This document shows positions 371 to 7,398 of a stretch of DNA of 64,000 bases, piece after piece; the first letter of the stretch is position 1, and the number at the start of each line of letters is the position of its first letter. Where the stretch lies: assembly GCF_017654485.1 (NCBI RefSeq), contig NZ_CP061091.1, positions 1,811,501 through 1,875,500 on the forward strand, in the 5' to 3' direction. A model generated the notes under the pieces. That model searched no databases and was not told the DNA's origin. It saw only the letters and a list, made by a program, of their open reading frames with translations. This DNA is from Roseomonas marmotae. Lineage in GTDB: Bacteria; Pseudomonadota; Alphaproteobacteria; Acetobacterales; Acetobacteraceae. The translations under genes were made by a program, and so were the position numbers.

Positions 371-450
371 GGCGGAGTCCTTCCTGACAATGTCCTGGGC
401 CGTAGAACGGCGGATGCGCGAGGACGTTGCGCGGAAGGCATAAGAAGGGG

Positions 451-470
451 CGGCGGCCCGTGGGCCGCCG
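451..470 (-). terminator. Hairpin terminator of the LacI-controlled catabolic operon
   Basis: A 9-bp perfect GC inverted repeat (CGGCGGCCC / GGGCCGCCG) with a tiny loop lies 17 bases past the dapA-like stop codon. On the minus strand it is followed by CCCCTTCTTAT, a pyrimidine-rich rather than pure U tract. It is therefore a plausible, not ideal, intrinsic terminator. Confidence 0.6.
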
Positions 471-486
471 CGTCAGGCGCGCCTGG

Positions 487-1404
487 TCAGCGGCCCCAGC
501 GGAGCGCCAGCACGTCGAGGCGCCGCGCGATCTCCAGCAGGCCCGCGCGGGTGGCGGGGTGCAGCGGCGCCAGCGGATGCCGGCCCGCGTCGCAGGCGAT
601 GATGCCGCCTTCCTTCATCAGCGCCTTCGCCGCCAGGAGGCCGCACTGCCGGTTCTCATGGTTGATGAGGGGCAGCCAGCGCGCATAGGCGGCCGCGGCG
701 GCCTCCCGCTCCCCCGCCTGCCAAGGGTCCATGATCTGGCGGATGCCGTCGGGATAGCCGCCGCCGGTCATGGACCCGGTGGCGCCGGCTTCGAGGTCGG
801 CCATCAGGGTGATGGCCTCCTCGCCATCCCAGGGGCCGACAATGGCCTCGCCGCCCAGCGCGATCATCTCGCGCAGCTTGTTCGCGGCAAAGGGCACCTC
901 GATCTTGAAGTAGGAGAGGTTCTCGATCTCCTTCGCCATGCGCGCGAGGAAGGCGGCGGAGAGCGGCGTGCCCGCCACCGGCGCATCCTGCACCATGATC
1001 GGGATGCCGATGGCATCCGAGACCGTCTGGTAGAACTCGTGGATCTTCGGCTCGGCCACGCGGATGGTGGCGCCATGATAGGGCGGCATCACCATGACCA
1101 TGGCGGCGCCGGCATCCTGCGCGCGGCGGGAGCGTTCGGCGCAGAGGCGGGAGGAGAAATGGGTGGTGGTGACGATCACCGGCACCCGTCCCGCGACGTG
1201 CCGCAGGATCTCGTCCTGCAGCACTTCACGCTCATGGTCGGAGAGGACGAACTGCTCCGAGAAATTCGCCAGGATGCACAGCCCGTGCGATCCTGCGTCG
1301 ATCATGAAATCGACGCAGCGGCGCTGGCCTTCGAGGTCCAGCCCGCCACGCTCGTCGAAGATGGTCGGCACCACCGGGAAGACGCCCTGATAGGGTCCTG
1401 CCAT
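487..1404 (-). CDS. Dihydrodipicolinate synthase/N-acetylneuraminate lyase family protein
   Basis: A 305-residue TIM-barrel class I aldolase/dehydratase of the DapA superfamily, the family's usual length. The start at 1404 is preferred over an upstream in-frame ATG because GGGAG sits just before it and homology begins at MAGPYQGVFPVVPT. The Schiff-base lysine is visible as K167 in SYFKIEVP. The tyrosine that normally acts as catalytic acid/base (YNxP in DapA) is replaced: the equivalent segment reads MVQDAPVAGT with Gln139. A lysine-biosynthesis role is therefore unlikely. Family relatives cleave or dehydrate 2-keto acids, and a pathway-specific aldolase or dehydratase is the best guess. It is the last gene of the operon, 71 bases after the DUF4387 gene. 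Confidence 0.85.
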   Translation of the reverse strand: MAGPYQGVFPVVPTIFDERGGLDLEGQRRCVDFMIDAGSHGLCILANFSEQFVLSDHEREVLQDEILRHVAGRVPVIVTTTHFSSRLCAERSRRAQDAGAAMVMVMPPYHGATIRVAEPKIHEFYQTVSDAIGIPIMVQDAPVAGTPLSAAFLARMAKEIENLSYFKIEVPFAANKLREMIALGGEAIVGPWDGEEAITLMADLEAGATGSMTGGGYPDGIRQIMDPWQAGEREAAAAAYARWLPLINHENRQCGLLAAKALMKEGGIIACDAGRHPLAPLHPATRAGLLEIARRLDVLALRWGR

Positions 1405-1475
1405 GTCTCGCTCCCTTAGCCCCTCTGTTCCGTGGCTTCGGGGGGAGCTTGGCATGGCGGGCGGTGCCGGCCAAG

Positions 1476-1796
1476 TCAGGCCTCGTTCAGCGGGATCTCC
1501 ACCTCCAGCAGCGGCGCGTGCTGCTGGGCGCCATAGACGTCGGTGTCCCCGATATCCCCCGCCGGCACCAGCCGGGGCAGGGTGGCCTTGAAGGCGGAGG
1601 CGGCATCATAGGGCGTGAAGAGCACGTCCTTCTCGTCCACCCCATAGAGGCGGGCGAAGAGGGCGGGGCAGAGCACGCCCGTCGCCTTTACCTTCTGGTA
1701 AGTGCCGTGGTCCTCGAAGAGCACGTCGATGGTAACGGAGAAAGGGCCGGCGTTCTTGCTCTTGCAGATCTGCGCGATCTCACGGATGCGGGGCAT
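1476..1796 (-). CDS. DUF4387 domain-containing protein
   Basis: A 106-residue soluble protein without signal peptide or membrane segment. It is recognised from the conserved family pattern: start MPRIREIAQICKSKNAGPF, then TIDVLFED, and a C-terminal acidic PLLEVEIPL. Start 1796 has an AGGAG ribosome-binding site at the right distance. That site overlaps the end of the upstream AtuA-family gene (11-base gap), so the two are likely co-translated. DUF4387 proteins are known to be encoded next to, or fused with, DUF1446/AtuA proteins and probably form one enzyme or complex with them. The reaction is not known; I infer a small subunit of the AtuA-like enzyme. Confidence 0.85.
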   Translation of the reverse strand: MPRIREIAQICKSKNAGPFSVTIDVLFEDHGTYQKVKATGVLCPALFARLYGVDEKDVLFTPYDAASAFKATLPRLVPAGDIGDTDVYGAQQHAPLLEVEIPLNEA

Positions 1797-1807
1797 GGCC
1801 TGTCTCC

Positions 1808-3169
1808 TCACACCATCTCGTATTCGATGGGGAACATCTCGCACGGGTCCTTCGGCGCCACGGTATGGAAGACGCTGAAGCGGAACATCGGCCCCAGCTC
1901 GATATCCGAAGGGCTGAAGGGGAAGGCCATGTTGCCCTCCTTGCACAGGCGGCCCGGGAAGTCGGCATGCAGCATGGAGGTGCGCGCCATCGCCAGGACG
2001 GCATTGGCGATATCCTGCGTGCGGCCCAGCACCTCGATCACGAAGCCCAGCTCGTGCGAGGTGATCTCCTTCTGCGGCTCCCAGGCGGCCATGACGCCGT
2101 CCTTGCCATAGGTGCGGACCACCAGCTGGTAATCTTCCGGAGGCACGCCGAAGGCGGCGGCCTTGGCGGCGACCTTGTTCCGGTGCGTCTCCAGATAGCT
2201 GTCGATCTGGCCGATCAGCACGGGGTCGCGCGTGCCGCAGATGCTGATGGCACGGTAGCCCGCGCGCTCCACACCCTCGAGCTTGATCGTGTACTGCTCG
2301 GCCGGCGTCCAGGTCATGCCATCGACCTTCACCGCGCGGTCGCTGACCGCGGTGATGGTGACGGCGCTGGTATCCAGCAGCCCGCCCGGCTCCACATGGT
2401 GGATCGGGCTGGAATTCTCATGCAGCGCGAAATTCGCCACGGCCAGCGGGGTGGAGCGGCGGATCGGGTTCGGCGGCTCGCAGATGATGTGGTCGTCGCG
2501 CACCCGCAGGAAGATGCAGTCCGGCTCCTTCGGCACGGTCGGCTCGGCGCCGCATTCCAGCATCTTGCCGGCGTACCAGGAGGGAGCCGGGTTCATCCCG
2601 GCGCGGATGGCCGGGCCCGCCCATTGCGCGGGGTCGCTGCTGCGGCCCGCCAGGATGACCTGCGCGCCATTGTCCAGCGCGCGCATGAAGGGCTCGGGGC
2701 CCATCATGCCGACGATGCGCTCGGCGCGGCGGATGGTCGCCTCGTCCAGCGGCTTCATCTTGGCCAGCGGCTTGCTCAGGCCGGCATTCACCCGCTCGAT
2801 CAGCGATTCCTTGCTCTGCTCGGCATGGATCAGCGCCATCTTGAAGGAGAGGCCCTCCTCCCGCGCGATCTCCCGCACCAGGGCAGCGGTGTCCTGCAGA
2901 TGCGGCTCACCGCCCGCACCACCGGAAGTCCCGATGATGCAGGGGATCTTGGCAGCCGTCGCGGCCAGCAGCATGAGCCGCAGGTCGCGCTTGACCGAGA
3001 GGCGCGAGCAGAAGGACTTGCCCGCGCCCAGGTAGTAGGGCCCTGGATCGGTGCTGCCGCCGTCGCAGCCGATCACATGCGGCTCCCACGACATACCGAT
3101 CCGCAGCGATTCCTCGGCGTAGCCGTATCCGAGGATACCGCTCGTCGAGAGCATTCTGAACTCTTGCAC
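1808..3169 (-). CDS. Acyclic terpene utilization AtuA family protein (DUF1446)
   Basis: A 453-residue cytoplasmic protein matching the DUF1446/AtuA family throughout. Seen in order: MLSTSGILGYGY at the N-terminus, the glycine-rich CDGGSTDPGPYYLG, GTSGGAGGEPHL, AGRSSDPAQWAG and a C-terminal HELGFVIEV region. AtuA itself is needed for citronellol/geraniol catabolism in Pseudomonas, but most family members are not tied to terpenes and the reaction is unsettled. The start is GTG at 3169 with AAGGGA upstream; an internal ATG at 3154 is the alternative. The gene lies 11 bases after the TctC-like gene. Its partners (DUF4387, lyase, Bug binding protein, flavin monooxygenase) suggest degradation of an oxygenated or N-substituted carboxylic acid, which is inference only. 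Confidence 0.85.
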   Translation of the reverse strand: MQEFRMLSTSGILGYGYAEESLRIGMSWEPHVIGCDGGSTDPGPYYLGAGKSFCSRLSVKRDLRLMLLAATAAKIPCIIGTSGGAGGEPHLQDTAALVREIAREEGLSFKMALIHAEQSKESLIERVNAGLSKPLAKMKPLDEATIRRAERIVGMMGPEPFMRALDNGAQVILAGRSSDPAQWAGPAIRAGMNPAPSWYAGKMLECGAEPTVPKEPDCIFLRVRDDHIICEPPNPIRRSTPLAVANFALHENSSPIHHVEPGGLLDTSAVTITAVSDRAVKVDGMTWTPAEQYTIKLEGVERAGYRAISICGTRDPVLIGQIDSYLETHRNKVAAKAAAFGVPPEDYQLVVRTYGKDGVMAAWEPQKEITSHELGFVIEVLGRTQDIANAVLAMARTSMLHADFPGRLCKEGNMAFPFSPSDIELGPMFRFSVFHTVAPKDPCEMFPIEYEMV

Positions 3170-3180
3170 GATGTAATCCC

Positions 3181-4191
3181 TTAGCCCTTGGGCAGAAGCC
3201 CATCCTTGTCGGCCTGCTGCCAGCGACGGTCTTCCTCGACCAGCAGGCTGGTAAATTCGCTGCGCGACAGCGCCGCAGGGTCGACCGCCAACTGCCTCAG
3301 GCGCTCCTTCAGGACGGGCGTCTGCATGGCCTTCAGCACCTCGGCATTGAGCTTGTCGGCGATGGGCGCCGGCAGCTTGGCGGGGGCGAACATGCCGAAC
3401 CAGCCGACGAACTCGGCACCCTGCACGCCACCCTCGTTCACGGTCGGGACATCCGGCATCAGGCTGAAGCGCTCTGTGCTGCTGATGGCCAGGACCTTGA
3501 TGGTGCCGGCCGACAGCAGCGGCATGGCGGTGGCGGTGCTCCCCCAGGCCACCGGCAGGTGCCCGCCAGTCAGCTCGGCCAGATAGGCGCCGCTGCCGCG
3601 ATAGGGGATCTCGATCATCTCGACCCCGGCGCGCTTGGCGAACTGGTTGGCGGTGAAGGAGGACTGCGCGTCCGAGGTGCCCTGGGCGATGCTGCCGGGC
3701 TTGTCCTTCGCGGCCTTCACCAGGTCGGCCAGGCTCTTGTAGGGGCTGTTCGCCGCCGTCATCAGCACCAGCGGGTAACGCGCCGTCATGGCGATGGGGG
3801 TGAAGTCCTTCAGCGGGTCGAAGGGCAGCTGCGGCGTGATATAGCGCGTCATCACATGCGTGCTGGTGACGACCATCAGCGTGTAGCCGTCCGGCTGGCT
3901 GTGGGAGACGGCCTCGCTGCCGACGATGCCATTGGCACCCGCGCGGTTCTCCACCACGAAGCTCTGGCCCAGGCTCTGGCCCAACGCCTCGGCGATGGCG
4001 CGGGTGGTGATGTCGGTGCCGCCACCGGGGGCATAGGGCACGACGACGCGCACCGTCTTGTTGGGCCAGTTGTCCTGCGCCCAGGCCGGGCGGATGGCCG
4101 GCATGGCCAGCGTTGCGAGGCCGGCGCCAAGCAGGCCACGGCGCGTCGCGGTCAGGTGCCCGCCCGTGAGGGAGGCCATCACTTTCTTCAT
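3181..4191 (-). CDS. Tripartite tricarboxylate transporter substrate-binding protein (Bug/TctC family)
   Basis: A 336-residue periplasmic binding protein. The N-terminus TRRGLLGAGLATLAMPAIRPAWAQ is a twin-arginine-type signal. The mature part starts NWPNKTVRVVVPYAPGGGTDITTRAIAE, the hallmark ligand loop of Bug proteins (PGGGTD), followed by VENRAGANGIVGSEAV. Bug proteins capture carboxylates, amino acids or aromatic acids for TctAB permeases, but no tctA/tctB is in this window, as is common for orphan Bug genes. ATG at 4191 is preceded by GGGAAG. It is co-directional with the monooxygenase upstream (128-base gap with two hairpins) and with the AtuA gene downstream (11-base gap), so it probably supplies the operon's substrate. 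Confidence 0.9.
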   Translation of the reverse strand: MKKVMASLTGGHLTATRRGLLGAGLATLAMPAIRPAWAQDNWPNKTVRVVVPYAPGGGTDITTRAIAEALGQSLGQSFVVENRAGANGIVGSEAVSHSQPDGYTLMVVTSTHVMTRYITPQLPFDPLKDFTPIAMTARYPLVLMTAANSPYKSLADLVKAAKDKPGSIAQGTSDAQSSFTANQFAKRAGVEMIEIPYRGSGAYLAELTGGHLPVAWGSTATAMPLLSAGTIKVLAISSTERFSLMPDVPTVNEGGVQGAEFVGWFGMFAPAKLPAPIADKLNAEVLKAMQTPVLKERLRQLAVDPAALSRSEFTSLLVEEDRRWQQADKDGLLPKG

Positions 4192-4234
4192 CGTTGTCTT
4201 CCCTGTCAGTTTATTCTTGCCGGAGTAGCCATCG

Positions 4235-4258
4235 GCCCCCCGGTTTCCGACGGGGGGC
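4235..4258. repeat. GC-rich inverted repeat between monooxygenase and binding-protein genes
   Basis: An 8-bp perfect stem (GCCCCCCG / CGGGGGGC) with an 8-base loop. With the hairpin at 4284-4314 it forms a double stem-loop in the 128-base intercistronic space. It may attenuate or process the operon mRNA. Confidence 0.5.
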
Positions 4259-4283
4259 GAGGGAGAAGGCGCGGGGGAGGATG

Positions 4284-4314
4284 GCCGGTGCCCTATGCTG
4301 GTCAGGGCACCGGC
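4284..4314 (-). terminator. Intercistronic hairpin after the flavin monooxygenase gene
   Basis: An 11-bp perfect inverted repeat (GCCGGTGCCCT / AGGGCACCGGC) with a 9-base loop begins 6 bases past the monooxygenase stop codon. No U tract follows. It is a Rho-independent-like hairpin or an mRNA-stabilising 3' end that could make the distal operon genes differentially expressed. Confidence 0.5.
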
Positions 4315-4319
4315 GAGGC

Positions 4320-5699
4320 TCACGAGACCTGCTGCAGCGCCGGCTTCCGCCACGCGCCCAGCTCGGGACGGGGCAGGCCGAGGTTCTCGCGCAGAGTCTT
4401 GCCCGCGTAGTCCTTGTGGTAGAGGCCGCGGCGCTGCAACTCCGGCACCACGAAGCGGGAGAAATCCTCAAAGGCGCCGGACATATGCGTGGCCGCCAGC
4501 ACGAAGCCGTCGCAGGCGCGGGCGGTGAACCATTCCTCCATCTGGTCGGCCACCTGGGTGGGCGTGCCGCAGAAGATCGGGAATTCGCCGATGGTGCCGC
4601 GGCCGGAGAAGTGCACGAAGTCGCGTACCGTCGGGTTCGGCTTGCCGGACAGGGCGACGATACGGTCCTTGAAGCCGGTCCAGGACAGCTTCTTCAGTTC
4701 CTCGTCCGTGAACTCGGAATCGAGATCCTTGGAGCCGAAGTCGAAGTTCAGCGCTTCCGACAGCAGCACCAGCGCGTCGATCGGCTTGGCCAGGGCGCGG
4801 ATGTATTCGCGCTTTTCCTCGGCCATCGCCTGGGTCTCGGCGACGCAGACATAGCAGGCCGGGCAGACCGCCACGCTGTCCGGGTCGCGGCCGGCGGCGG
4901 CGACGGAAGCCTTCAGCTCGCCATACTGCTTCTGGCCCATGGCGATATTCGGGTAGACCACGAAGATCAACTCGCCCCAGCGGCCGGCGAACTGGCGGCC
5001 ACGGCCGCTCTGCCCCGCCTGGATCAGCACCGGGTGGCCTTGGGCCGAGCGCGGCACCGGCAGCGGCCCGGCCGACTTGAAATACTGGCCCTGGTGGTTG
5101 AGCTTATGGACCTTGCTGCCGTCGGCGAAGCGGCCGGAGATCTTGTCGCCGATGATGGCGTCATCCTCCCAGCTGTCCCACAGCCCCATGACGACTTCCA
5201 TGAACTCGTCGGCGCGCTCGTAGCGGGCGTCATGCGCCAGATGGCCGTCGCGGCCGAAATTGGCGGCTTCCGAGTTGTTCAGGGAGGTGACGACGTTCCA
5301 GGCGGCGCGACCGCCCGTCATCAGGTCCAGCGTCGCGAAGAGGCGTGCGACGTGGAAGGGCTCGTAATAGGTGGTGGAATAGGTGACGCCGAGGCCGAGC
5401 TTCTCCGTCGCCATGCCGATAGCGGTGATGATGGTGGCGGGGTCCATCTTCACCACGCGCACGCCATTCTCGACGGCGTCGCGATGGTCGTTGTTGTAGA
5501 TGTCCGGCATCGCCAGGCGGTCGTCGAAGAAGGCGAGATGGAACTTGCCGTCCTCCAGCGCGCGGCCGATGCGCTGGAAGTACTTCGCGCTCAGAAAATC
5601 CATGGGATTGGCGGGATGGCGCCAGGAGCCGGGGGCGATGGAGCAGTTCTGTGCCTGCAGGAAGCCCACCATCTTCATTTGCCGTTCCGGGGTGCTCAT
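4320..5699 (-). CDS. NtaA/DmoA/SnaA-family FMN-dependent monooxygenase
   Basis: A 459-residue luciferase-like flavin monooxygenase (family length about 450) of the two-component type that needs a separate flavin reductase. Visible signatures are MVGFLQAQNCSIAPGSWRHP at the start, YEPFHVARLFATLDLMTGGRAAWNVVTS (the classic ARxFATLDxLSxGRxxWNxVTS segment), GHPVLIQAGQSGRGRQFAG, and a C-terminal DGFVLAATH. The family includes nitrilotriacetate, dibenzothiophene-sulfone and dimethyl-sulfide monooxygenases, so C-N or C-S bond oxidation is likely; the substrate is unknown. Start 5699 follows GGAAGGAGAG. It is the first gene of the LacI-facing operon, and its leader contains an operator-like palindrome. 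No reductase gene is adjacent. Confidence 0.88.
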   Translation of the reverse strand: MSTPERQMKMVGFLQAQNCSIAPGSWRHPANPMDFLSAKYFQRIGRALEDGKFHLAFFDDRLAMPDIYNNDHRDAVENGVRVVKMDPATIITAIGMATEKLGLGVTYSTTYYEPFHVARLFATLDLMTGGRAAWNVVTSLNNSEAANFGRDGHLAHDARYERADEFMEVVMGLWDSWEDDAIIGDKISGRFADGSKVHKLNHQGQYFKSAGPLPVPRSAQGHPVLIQAGQSGRGRQFAGRWGELIFVVYPNIAMGQKQYGELKASVAAAGRDPDSVAVCPACYVCVAETQAMAEEKREYIRALAKPIDALVLLSEALNFDFGSKDLDSEFTDEELKKLSWTGFKDRIVALSGKPNPTVRDFVHFSGRGTIGEFPIFCGTPTQVADQMEEWFTARACDGFVLAATHMSGAFEDFSRFVVPELQRRGLYHKDYAGKTLRENLGLPRPELGAWRKPALQQVS

Positions 5700-5786
5700 C
5701 GGCTCAGCCTCTCCTTCCTGCCGGCAGGCATTGTCGGGCCCGGCCGGGAAATTTCCTCTGGAACACCAGCCTTTGTCAGCCGATGT

Positions 5787-5802
5787 GCGCGAACGTTTGC
5801 GC
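5787..5802. promoter_or_regulatory. LacI-family operator O1
   Basis: A 16-bp near-perfect palindrome GCGCGAACGTTTGCGC with a central CG (core AACGTT) and only one mismatched pair. This is the typical architecture of LacI/GalR operators. It lies 88 bases upstream of the monooxygenase start and 168 bases upstream of the divergent lacI-type gene, so the encoded repressor is the natural candidate ligand. Confidence 0.7.
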
Positions 5803-5929
5803 TTTCGTGCCGCAGTAAGAAGGTTGCAGAGCCGCGCGTCAACAGAAATTTCGGGAAGGATGATCATGACTCCGCGTACTTTCCTGAACAGGAGGCACCT
5901 CATGACCTAGTGACTTTGCTGAAACGGAT

Positions 5930-5945
5930 GCGCGAACGGTGGCGC
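5930..5945. promoter_or_regulatory. Second LacI-type operator-like half site O2
   Basis: GCGCGAACGGTGGCGC repeats the left half of O1 exactly (GCGCGAACG) and keeps GCGC at the far end, but the right half is imperfect. It lies 25 bases before the lacI-type start codon, where binding would autoregulate the regulator. The centres of O1 and O2 are 143 bp apart, which would allow DNA looping. Confidence 0.5.
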
Positions 5946-5970
5946 AGGAGATGCGTGCTACACTGCCGGC

Positions 5971-7023
5971 ATGAATGACGTCCCGCCGCCCGCCGCCTTT
6001 CGCCAGCGTGCCACCATCGTCACGCTCTCCCGCCTGGCGGGCGTGGCACCTTCCACCATCTCCCGCGCTTTGAAGGGGGACACCCGCATCTCGGCGGAAA
6101 CGCGGGCGCGGATCGCCACGCTGGCGCAGGAGCTGGGCTACACACCCAATGCCCTGGCACGCACACTCTCATCCGGCCGCAGTGGATTGATCGGGCTGGT
6201 GCTCGGGCCGTCCACCCATCCGATCTATACGGAGATCCTGCACGAGACGGTGGCCCAGGCCGGCGAGCGGGGGATGCGCATGTTGATGATCCATGCCGGC
6301 GCCGGGCCGATCGAGGACAAGACGGCGGAAGCCCTGCTGCAGTACAAGGTGGATGGCTGCCTGATCACCTCGGCCGAGCTTTCCTCCCGCGCCGCCCATA
6401 TCTGCTCGGCCAACGGGGTGCCGGTGGTGATGGTCAACCGCGTGGCGCGGGAACATTCCTCTGCGGTGGCCTGCGACAACCGTGCCGGTGGCGGGGAACT
6501 GGCGGCATTGCTGATCGCGCACGGGCATCGTCGCTTCGGCCTGGTCAATACCTCCAACCGCACTTCAACGGCGCTGGAACGCGAGCAGGGCTTCGTCGAG
6601 CATCTGGAGAAGGCGGGCCAGAAGCTGATGCTGCGGCTGGACGGGCAGTCCACCTATGACGGCGGCTTCGAGGCCGGGCGACAGATCGTCGCCCTGCCAG
6701 CGCGCCGCCGGCCGGATGCCATCTTCGCCGTCAGCGATATCATCGGCATGGGCGTGCTGGATGCGCTGCGGCTGGGGGGCGTGCGGGTGCCGCAGGATAT
6801 CTCGGTGGTGGCTTTCGACGATATTCCCCAGGCCGCATGGCCGATCTACGACCTGACCACCGTGGCGCAGCCGCTGGGGGCCATGGTGCGCCGGGGGCTG
6901 GATCTGCTGGCTGCCCGCATGACCGATCCCGGCCTGCCGGATGAAACCGTCACGCTGCGCGGCAAGCTGATCGTGCGCGGCTCGGTTCGCGTGATTGACC
7001 GGAATTCAGTTCCAATTGCGTAA
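5971..7023 (+). CDS. LacI family transcriptional regulator
   Basis: A 350-residue regulator of normal family length. The helix-turn-helix is at residues about 16-70 (VTLSRLAGVAPSTISRALKGDTRISAETRARI, then the minor-groove hinge TPNALARTLSSGRSG). A periplasmic-binding-protein-like effector domain follows (GLVLGPSTHPIYTEIL, DGCLITSAE, PDAIFAVSDIIGMGVLDALR, ISVVAFDDIP). It is transcribed divergently from the five-gene operon across 271 bases that contain two matching operator-like palindromes, so it very likely represses that operon and itself. The inducer is probably the operon's substrate or an intermediate; it cannot be named from sequence. The protein is somewhat diverged from sugar regulators, and LacI members controlling non-sugar catabolism are known. 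Confidence 0.92.
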   Translation: MNDVPPPAAFRQRATIVTLSRLAGVAPSTISRALKGDTRISAETRARIATLAQELGYTPNALARTLSSGRSGLIGLVLGPSTHPIYTEILHETVAQAGERGMRMLMIHAGAGPIEDKTAEALLQYKVDGCLITSAELSSRAAHICSANGVPVVMVNRVAREHSSAVACDNRAGGGELAALLIAHGHRRFGLVNTSNRTSTALEREQGFVEHLEKAGQKLMLRLDGQSTYDGGFEAGRQIVALPARRRPDAIFAVSDIIGMGVLDALRLGGVRVPQDISVVAFDDIPQAAWPIYDLTTVAQPLGAMVRRGLDLLAARMTDPGLPDETVTLRGKLIVRGSVRVIDRNSVPIA

Positions 7024-7077: not shown

Positions 7078-7398
7078 ATGCGTCATGCCTTGATCGCCGC
7101 CGCTGCTCTGCTGGCTGCCCTTTCGGCCCCCTCCATCGCTCAGGCGGCCGACCGCCGGGTGGAGGTGGTGAATGCCTCCAAGCAGGAACTGCGCGAATTC
7201 TACGCTTCCAACGCCAAGCGCAGCTCCTGGGAAGAGGATATCCTGGGCGAGGATGTGCTGCCGCCGGGCGAGTCCATCGTCATCGATGACGGTTCCGGCG
7301 CCTGCAACTTCGACCTCCTGGCGGTGCTGGACGGTGGTCGCAAGGTCGAGCGGCGCAACGTCAATGTCTGCGAGATCAGCCGCTTTACCGTGCGCTGA
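7078..7398 (+). CDS. Small secreted protein of unknown function
   Basis: A 106-residue protein with a clear Sec signal peptide (residues 1-23, ending SIAQA before AD). The mature domain of about 83 residues is polar and contains exactly two cysteines (in GSGACNFDLL and VNVCEISRF), which could form a disulfide in the periplasm. It has a small beta-rich look with an acidic central loop (SSWEEDILGEDVLPPGESIVIDDG). The repeated pattern of polar strands and the C-terminal disulfide resemble short alphaproteobacterial periplasmic proteins, but I do not recognise a named family. It lies 54 bases after the lacI-type gene on the same strand and 6 bases from the end of the convergent SGNH gene. Confidence 0.7.
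   Translation: MRHALIAAAALLAALSAPSIAQAADRRVEVVNASKQELREFYASNAKRSSWEEDILGEDVLPPGESIVIDDGSGACNFDLLAVLDGGRKVERRNVNVCEISRFTVR

What the first reader, a model, noticed from the sequence alone, without database searches (positions are those of the whole stretch)
487..7023. LacI-controlled operon joining a flavin monooxygenase, Bug binding protein, AtuA/DUF4387 pair and an altered DapA-type lyase
The five co-directional genes and the divergent LacI regulator share operator-like palindromes. AtuA-DUF4387 enzymes have no settled reaction. The DapA-superfamily lyase keeps its Schiff-base Lys167 but carries Gln139 where the catalytic Tyr is expected, so it belongs to a specialised subgroup. Together the genes look like a pathway for an N-, S- or O-substituted carboxylic acid that is oxidised, modified by AtuA/DUF4387, then cleaved to a keto acid.
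Basis: partly seen in the sequence, partly recalled or inferred. Interest (0 to 1): 0.72.

Follow-up and report, generated by a model that had tools for sequence, protein, structure and literature searches.

The report
Oxygenase plus citramalate-lyase-like catabolic cassette
A switchable bacterial gene set seems to pair a flavin oxygenase with a relative of citramalate lyase to break down an unidentified organic acid, while the 'altered lyase' beside it looks like an ordinary sugar-acid dehydratase that lies there by position.

Summary
Genes, coordinates and the Gln139/Lys167 residues are as described; the pathway is not. (1) The 'altered DapA lyase' is an L-2-keto-3-deoxyarabonate (L-KDA) dehydratase: about 70% identical to 3fkk, with Lys, Gln and both catalytic Glu in 145 of 145 aligned rows; 10 of 20 fetched relatives adjoin an L-arabinonate-dehydratase-like gene. 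It is not a core member: two same-genus genomes have its neighbourhood without the cassette, one has the cassette without it. (2) AtuA/DUF4387 match both subunits of citramalate lyase (PDB 9erq/9evf; 42% and 47%; model TM 0.87), whose E. coli form (91%) lies in a methylaspartate operon. (3) The real unit is LacI, LLM monooxygenase, binding protein, AtuA, DUF4387: LLM and DUF4387 accompany AtuA in 41 of 41 close loci, and the conserved operator TGCGCAAACGTTTGCGCA has only two places in the genome within 3 mismatches, both here. Best reading: oxygenation yields a citramalate-type hydroxy acid that AtuA/DUF4387 splits to acetate and a 2-oxo acid. Substrate unknown.

The parts
5971..7023 (+). LacI-family repressor, divergent from the operon
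   Evidence: Pfam LacI + Peripla_BP_3; a LacI at 55% identity or more lies near AtuA in 26 of 41 close loci
5929..5946 (.). operator O2 (TGCGCGAACGGTGGCGCA), about 25 bp before the lacI start
   Evidence: similar second sites in L073, L074, L075
5786..5803 (.). operator O1 (TGCGCGAACGTTTGCGCT), about 87 bp before the LLM start; 143 bp from O2
   Evidence: consensus in relatives TGCGCAAACGTTTGCGCA
4320..5699 (-). LLM-class FMN-dependent monooxygenase, NtaA/DmoA subfamily, nearest solved relative DszA (5tlc)
   Evidence: TIGR03860 503 bits, cut-off 279.7; 5tlc 408 bits; tree
3181..4194 (-). Bug/TctC periplasmic binding protein
   Evidence: PF03401 210 bits; Bug27 2qpq nearest
1808..3169 (-). AtuA-family protein, relative of citramalate lyase large subunit CmlA
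   Evidence: PF07287; 9erq_A 353 bits, 42% identity; 9evf TM 0.87
1476..1796 (-). DUF4387 protein, relative of citramalate lyase small subunit CmlB
   Evidence: PF14330 112 bits; 9erq_B 87 bits, 47% identity; 11 bp after AtuA
487..1404 (-). L-2-keto-3-deoxyarabonate dehydratase (DHDPS superfamily); adjacent but not a core member of the cassette
   Evidence: 3fkk/7c0c 468 bits; catalytic residues; separability
450..471 (-). terminator-like hairpin after the DapA-like gene; none was found between DUF4387 and the DapA-like gene
   Evidence: 3 such sites found in the region against a mean of 3.6 in shuffles, so weak

Best explanation
The functional unit is a cassette of five genes (lacI, LLM monooxygenase, Bug binding protein, AtuA, DUF4387; 1476-7023) that occurs at different genomic places. 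A periplasmic protein collects an organic acid and LacI lifts from two operators. The two-component LLM enzyme (FMNH2 supplied by a reductase, here encoded elsewhere) oxygenates or oxidatively cleaves it. The resulting citramalate-type 2-hydroxy acid is split by the two-subunit AtuA/DUF4387 lyase, without a CoA thioester, into acetate and a 2-oxo acid such as pyruvate. The neighbouring DapA-like protein is an L-KDA dehydratase of the L-arabinonate route, joined by position. Shown by sequence: families, operator, conservation of LLM+AtuA+DUF4387, residues and separability of the dehydratase. Inferred: order of steps, nature of the hydroxy acid, uptake role, LacI binding. Not known: the substrate.
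For: AtuA and DUF4387 each match one chain of the same solved two-subunit enzyme, citramalate lyase (42% and 47% identity). An AF2 model of AtuA superposes on 9evf (citramalate lyase-ADP-pyruvate) with TM 0.87; no other chain has E below 0.001. The solved CmlA is 91% identical to the AtuA protein that lies between methylaspartate ammonia-lyase and class I fumarase in an E. coli plasmid record, and a 54% relative has the same company in Prevotella. 90 positions are shared between 81 AtuAs of the window's kind (80 named loci plus the window; 69 of the 80 have LLM within 3 kb) and 3 AtuAs of methylaspartate/fumarase clusters. DUF4387 adjoins AtuA in 80 of 80 loci; LLM within 3 kb in 41 of 41 close and 28 of 39 more distant ones. 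In the LLM tree one side of a branch (46 rows) has AtuA and/or CaiB/CitE-type genes in 41 rows, the other (45 rows) in none at my thresholds. Flavin reductase genes adjoin LLM in relatives.
Against: In 13 of 32 fetched LLM loci with AtuA, CaiB and CitE-type genes are also present, so AtuA/DUF4387 may do a step in series with acyl-CoA cleavage. 22 positions differ consistently between the window's kind and the three citramalate-context AtuAs (only 3 in that set), so the substrate need not be citramalate. No methylaspartate or fumarase gene is among the neighbours annotated. No flavin reductase remains in the window operon. 11 of 39 more distant AtuA loci show no LLM within 3 kb (some contigs end). 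Activity, substrate and inducer are untested.
Confidence: 0.5

Rival explanations
1. One reading: all five genes form one linear pathway in which the DapA-type protein performs the final cleavage to a keto acid.
For: 71 bp gap after DUF4387, same strand, no terminator-like site between and one after it; the pair is kept in 4 genomes including this one.
Against: The protein has all four catalytic residues of L-KDA dehydratase; 10 of 20 fetched relatives lie within 90 bp of an L-arabinonate-dehydratase-like gene; its tree clade has AtuA-adjacent and non-adjacent members; cassette without DapA and DapA site without cassette both exist in the genus.
Confidence: 0.05
2. AtuA/DUF4387 of this cassette is a divergent member that catalyses a different reaction (for example hydration, isomerisation or a nucleotide-linked step), upstream of hydroxyacyl-CoA cleavage where CaiB/CitE-type enzymes are present.
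For: Co-presence with CaiB and CitE-type genes in 13 of 32 AtuA-containing LLM loci; 22 group-specific positions; the solved relative is titled an ADP-pyruvate complex, so nucleotide chemistry is possible.
Against: CaiB/CitE were not both seen within 6 kb in 19 of 32 AtuA loci (some contigs end) and gave no hit in the 15.5 kb beside the window cassette on the dapA side; the closest enzyme with a name is a lyase.
Confidence: 0.25
3. The L-KDA dehydratase has been recruited: the LLM/AtuA pathway yields, or is co-induced with, a sugar-acid intermediate that it dehydrates.
For: It is the only match at E 1e-60 in the genome, read-through from the LacI-controlled promoter is possible, and the pairing is kept in 4 genomes.
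Against: The genome has a 78% relative of the L-arabinonate-dehydratase-like protein on another contig that it could serve in trans; it was not seen near AtuA in 77 of 80 named loci (some contigs end).
Confidence: 0.12
4. LLM acts as a Baeyer-Villiger type enzyme making an ester or lactone that a lactonase opens before AtuA/DUF4387 acts.
For: Metallo-beta-lactamase-fold, alcohol dehydrogenase and flavin reductase genes follow the cassette in several rhizobial, Halomonadaceae and Methylobacterium loci.
Against: Nearest named solved LLM relatives are DszA, YtnJ and nitrilotriacetate monooxygenase types; the window operon has no lactonase or ADH gene.
Confidence: 0.08

Closest known systems
Citramalate lyase CmlA/CmlB (PDB 9erq, 9evf)
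   Same: Two adjacent genes, each matching its own chain (353 and 87 bits; 42% and 47%); TM 0.87; 90 conserved positions shared with pathway-placed relatives
   Different: 22 group-specific substitutions; genomic partner is an LLM oxygenase, not methylaspartate genes; substrate unproven
L-2-keto-3-deoxyarabonate dehydratase (3fkk, 7c0c; Azospirillum brasilense)
   Same: 468 bits, about 70% identity; equivalents of Gln143, Glu173, Glu200 and the Schiff-base Lys all present
   Different: Gene lies beside the LLM cassette instead of an L-arabinonate-dehydratase-like gene
NtaA/DmoA/DszA LLM monooxygenases
   Same: TIGR03860 far above cut-off; DszA 5tlc 408 bits
   Different: Own branch of the tree, marked by hydroxy-acid lyase partners; substrate unknown; no reductase gene in the operon
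CaiB CoA-transferase + CitE-type lyase modules
   Same: Accompany the same LLM branch
   Different: CoA-dependent, unrelated proteins; not found in the window operon

Membership tests
L-KDA dehydratase | Gln in place of catalytic Tyr, Schiff-base Lys, Glu173 and Glu200 (A. brasilense numbering) | tested here: met
   Q139, K167, E169, E196 in 145 of 145 aligned rows, window included; residue roles from passages of PMC9795676
L-KDA dehydratase | closest to characterised members rather than to DapA/NanA/KdgD | tested here: met
   468 bits to 3fkk/7c0c against 87 bits for the next chain; NCBIfam dapA, NanA, KdgD all far below cut-off
L-KDA dehydratase | relatives placed with L-arabinonate dehydratase | tested here: met
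   10 of 20 fetched relatives; the neighbour scores 849 bits to NF009559, below its cut-off of 882, and 934 to the wider subfamily NF004784, so 'like'; the window copy itself is not so placed
L-KDA dehydratase | enzyme activity | not testable with these tools
   needs assay
Citramalate lyase CmlAB | two adjacent genes matching both subunits | tested here: met
Citramalate lyase CmlAB | fold of CmlA | tested here: met
   TM 0.87 to 9evf from a model of mean pLDDT 76.5 built on 15 sequences
Citramalate lyase CmlAB | company of citramalate-forming genes (mesaconase, methylaspartate genes) | tested here: not met
   none among window neighbours annotated; met for E. coli and Prevotella relatives; rest of the genome not searched
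Citramalate lyase CmlAB | substrate-specific residues | tested here: inconclusive
   22 consistent differences, comparison set of only 3; ligand contacts of 9evf not seen
Citramalate lyase CmlAB | lyase activity | not testable with these tools
   needs assay; hence called a relative, not a member
NtaA/DmoA LLM monooxygenase | family score above curated cut-off | tested here: met
   503.2 against 279.7 bits
NtaA/DmoA LLM monooxygenase | flavin reductase gene beside it | tested here: not met
   none in the window; of 18 other loci listed (14 without repeats of one contig) 13 (9) have it, L074 a shortened remnant, 4 no hit there; two distant reductases elsewhere in the genome (36%, 28%)
LacI-family local repressor | HTH and ligand-binding domains plus conserved palindromic operator at its own promoter | tested here: met
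   binding itself not tested
HpsN (sulfopropanediol dehydrogenase), for a neighbour gene in other loci | G-R-Y-A/S-H motif | tested here: not met
   absent in 12 of 12 cluster members; motif from passages of PMC11382572

The most novel reading that the evidence does not exclude
An undescribed oxygen-dependent catabolic module: an LLM monooxygenase branch that delivers citramalate-type hydroxy acids to a CoA-free, possibly nucleotide-linked lyase subfamily (AtuA/DUF4387), spread as a LacI-controlled cassette across Alphaproteobacteria and Halomonadaceae, with interchangeable transporters and with CaiB/CitE as an alternative or additional cleavage module.
Probability: 0.35. Interest if true: 0.6.

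Novelty: new variant of a known kind. Interest (0 to 1): 0.4.

Why it matters
AtuA (PF07287) and DUF4387 (PF14330) are widespread: a capped search gave 4829 relatives of this AtuA at E 1e-40 among 7998 candidates. My searches of the open library gave no paper on their function (listings). Tying the pair to the solved citramalate lyase gives a testable reaction for them. The solved CmlA is 91% identical to the E. coli methylaspartate-cluster protein, so its depositors have probably closed the gap in citramalate cleavage that Kronen and Berg 2015 left open (PMC4682846, passages); I claim no discovery there. What looks new is the coupling of this lyase family to an LLM oxygenase in aerobic bacteria. 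The correction matters too: the 'altered lyase' should not be used to infer the pathway.

Tried and rejected
Five-gene pathway with DapA as last step: rejected after residue, synteny and tree tests. HpsN/sulfonate link: a HisD-family gene recurs near the cassette (nearest solved for L086: DHPS dehydrogenases); of the twelve cluster members L125 proved nearest to histidinol dehydrogenase (L129 has the same stretch), and the HpsN motif is absent in all twelve. Such a gene occurs in 111 of 299 family genomes, and in 15 of the 20 whose AtuA is 72% or more identical (counted by hand, kinship not corrected), so I do not use it. Simple replacement of AtuA/DUF4387 by CaiB/CitE: weakened because 13 loci have both. 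Operator: the matrix was built from sites of other loci, not the window's, but 23 of 26 intergenic regions with a score of 18 or more are partly circular, and 2 of the 26 (L102, L111) have no site (scores 1.9, 2.0). In the genome search the reversed control pattern also matched once on each strand against two places for the real one, so the weight lies on where the two places are, not on their number. Random 300-base controls gave 11 of 520 at 18 or more, not checked for overlap with true sites. The sigma-70 scan gave 1 site, 1.0 expected, not in the LacI/LLM gap. Paper searches for DUF4387, DUF1446, AtuA family, citramalate lyase and combinations gave no paper on this module.

Limits: gene maps of relatives come from a home-made GC-position ORF caller that missed some DUF4387 genes, so counts rest on tblastn. 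'Close' and 'more distant' loci are identity bands (72% cut), not clades of an AtuA tree. Named loci are the best 80 of 196; part of them are the same contigs as G-handle loci. LLM neighbours: 100 fetched loci gave 90 LLM hits; some contigs end within 6 kb, AtuA-bearing loci were fetched because they had AtuA, CaiB counted from 40% and CitE-type from 35% identity, and two rows of the other branch (L209, L213) have CaiB at 34%. The LLM tree was rooted at the midpoint. Bacterial order names are recalled except those.
Full report
Observation. The window carries six genes at the stated place: a LacI-family regulator on the plus strand (5971-7023) and, on the minus strand, an LLM-class monooxygenase (4320-5699), a Bug/TctC binding protein (3181-4194), AtuA (1808-3169), DUF4387 (1476-1796) and a DHDPS-superfamily protein (487-1404). 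Bug to AtuA and AtuA to DUF4387 are 11 bp apart; DUF4387 to the DHDPS-type gene 71 bp (from the coordinates and the ATG at 1404).

The DHDPS-type protein. Its nearest solved relatives are L-2-keto-3-deoxyarabonate dehydratases (3fkk, 7c0c: 468 bits; the next chain 87 bits; about 70% identity). A review (PMC9795676, passages seen) says that in the Azospirillum enzyme Gln143 replaces the aldolase Tyr, a conserved Lys forms the Schiff base, and Glu173 and Glu200 are the catalytic bases. With the offset of four the window has Gln139, Lys167, Glu169 and Glu196, and 145 of 145 aligned rows keep them. Of 20 fetched homologues outside the cassette, 10 lie within 90 bp of an L-arabinonate-dehydratase-like gene; that neighbour scores 849 bits to the L-arabinonate dehydratase model, just under its cut-off of 882, and is well inside the wider dehydratase subfamily. 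In the window's genome this is the only such protein at E 1e-60, and a 78% relative of the arabinonate-dehydratase-like protein lies on another contig.

It is also separable. Two genomes of the genus (L153, L154) have the dehydratase, homologues of the 106-aa ORF, a GDSL-type hydrolase and OpgC in a row with nothing of the cassette between; in the window the cassette lies exactly between the dehydratase and these same genes. Another genome (L247) has the cassette with 92% identical AtuA and no dehydratase in the 19.5 kb taken. Of nine genus genomes with AtuA at 86% or more, four have the dehydratase beside it (this one, L033, L248, L249), four do not (L035, L036, L247, L250), and in one the contig ends (L251). 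Over 80 named loci it is beside AtuA in 3. In the tree the window's dehydratase lies in a 26-row group with both AtuA-adjacent and non-adjacent members. Whether the cassette came in or dropped out is not decided; either way it occurs without the dehydratase. Co-transcription by read-through remains possible: no terminator-like site was found between them and one follows (no more sites than chance).

AtuA and DUF4387. Each matches one chain of PDB 9erq, named citramalate lyase subunits A and B (353 and 87 bits), at 42% and 47% identity. An AF2 model from 15 sequences (mean pLDDT 76.5) finds 9evf, 'Citramalate lyase - ADP - pyruvate complex', with TM 0.87 and E 1e-48, and no other chain under E 0.001. 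AtuA/DUF4387 pairs also lie in methylaspartate operons of an E. coli record (between methylaspartate ammonia-lyase and class I fumarase) and of Prevotella nigrescens. The E. coli protein is 91% identical to the solved CmlA, so that case is the solved enzyme itself and not independent support; the Prevotella one (54%) is more so. Kronen and Berg 2015 (PMC4682846, passages) noted this gene as DUF1446 of unknown function and left the fate of citramalate open. Comparing 81 AtuAs of the window's kind (80 named loci, 69 of them with LLM near, plus the window) with these two and a Klebsiella fumarase-cluster member, 90 positions are constant in both groups and 22 differ consistently: same fold, probably same catalytic core, perhaps another substrate.

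The cassette. In the 80 named loci DUF4387 adjoins AtuA in 80. LLM lies within 3 kb in 41 of 41 loci with AtuA at 72% or more and in 28 of 39 below; a LacI at 55% or more in 26 of 41 and 0 of 39; Bug adjacent in 24 of 41 and 0 of 39. Carriers of the close form include Acetobacteraceae, Rhizobium, Phyllobacterium, Methylobacterium, Roseovarius, Salipiger and Vreelandella of the Halomonadaceae. In rhizobial loci the transporter is a TRAP system and an MFS protein, and flavin reductase, metallo-beta-lactamase-fold and alcohol dehydrogenase genes follow; Methylobacterium aquaticum has a similar set. A flavin reductase stands between LLM and the next gene in 13 of 18 other loci examined (9 of 14 without repeats of one contig), is a shortened remnant in L074, gave no hit there in 4, and in the window that gap is 129 bp without a hit; only distant reductases were found elsewhere in the genome.

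Regulation. The LacI/LLM intergenic regions share the palindrome TGCGCAAACGTTTGCGCA. The window has two copies, 5786-5803 and 5929-5946, 143 bp apart. They are the only two places in the 4.83 Mb genome within three mismatches of the pattern; the reversed control pattern also matched once on each strand, so the argument rests on their position, not their number. This fits a local regulator. Of 26 divergent LacI/LLM gaps in named loci 23 score 18 or more, one 14.3 and two have no site (the matrix came from some of these loci). In several rhizobial and rhodobacterial loci a further copy precedes the TRAP genes, which suggests one regulon of uptake and breakdown; but a second LacI (38-40% identical) stands there in some of them and could own that site.

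What the oxygenase feeds. Among 90 LLM homologues in 100 fetched loci, 32 have AtuA (13 of them with CaiB- and CitE-type genes too), 8 have CaiB and/or CitE types alone, 50 neither. In the tree these are hardly mixed: one side of a branch (46 rows, window included) holds all 41 positives and 5 negatives, the other 45 rows hold none. One CitE-type protein tested is nearest to malyl-CoA lyase and acyl-CoA lyase beta chains, and one CaiB type to a CaiB/BaiF protein and succinate-hydroxymethylglutarate CoA-transferase. Both modules therefore point to a hydroxy-dicarboxylate after the oxygenase. This is inference: AtuA loci were partly fetched because of AtuA, and co-presence of both modules argues that they may act in series.

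Mechanism. Committed reading: uptake by the Bug-type protein; FMNH2-dependent oxygenation or oxidative cleavage by LLM; cleavage of a citramalate-type hydroxy acid by AtuA/DUF4387 to acetate plus a 2-oxo acid; de-repression by an unknown inducer. Confidence 0.5 overall; about 0.9 for the dehydratase identity and about 0.85 for LacI and operator. The substrate cannot be named from sequence.

Verdict. A dehydratase was taken for a specialised lyase, and a protein pair thought to have no reaction has a named, solved relative.

Noticed in passing
L201:7995-9679 (E. coli plasmid record), L206:8001-9722 (Prevotella nigrescens): AtuA/DUF4387 follow methylaspartate ammonia-lyase and precede fumarase-type genes; the E. 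coli protein is 91% identical to the solved citramalate lyase CmlA, which fits the step that PMC4682846 left open.
   Followed up: partly
window 4195-4319; L074 7002-7379: The flavin reductase gene found between LLM and the next gene in many relatives is missing in the window and a shortened remnant in Pseudoroseomonas ludipueritiae (38% over residues 38-175).
   Followed up: yes
L076, L081, L084, L085, L086, L088, L091, L094, L115, L117; own genome contig C5 (L257:7988-12112): A HisD-family dehydrogenase (in some loci with a 3HCDH-type dehydrogenase, an SDR and a second LacI) recurs near the cassette in different orders; in the window's own genome a similar set is present on another contig. 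The L086 protein is nearest to DHPS dehydrogenases but all lack the HpsN motif.
   Followed up: partly
L199:8021-10685 (Halomarina plasmid): An archaeal plasmid carries a shorter LLM gene, AtuA and DUF4387 in a row amid isochorismatase-family, amidohydrolase, CoA transferase, CoA ester lyase and isopropylmalate-dehydratase-like genes.
   Followed up: no
L200:7986-16045 (Klebsiella plasmid): AtuA/DUF4387 with aldehyde and alcohol dehydrogenases and a fumarase gene on a plasmid typed as conjugative; other Klebsiella plasmid records show an AtuA match of the same score.
   Followed up: no
window 7078-7398; L154 7540-8912: A 106-aa ORF with a signal-like start beside lacI has three homologous stretches in a row at the cassette-free site of L154.
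   Followed up: no
L182-L192 in part and most of L207-L246: A second LLM branch of 45 rows (about 56-65% identical to the window's) shows none of the lyase partners at my thresholds; several members adjoin a Bug gene.
   Followed up: no
L001 (own genome C1:1317088-1318425): The genome has a second AtuA-family gene (464 bits to PF07287, 25% identical to the window's), not studied further.
   Followed up: no
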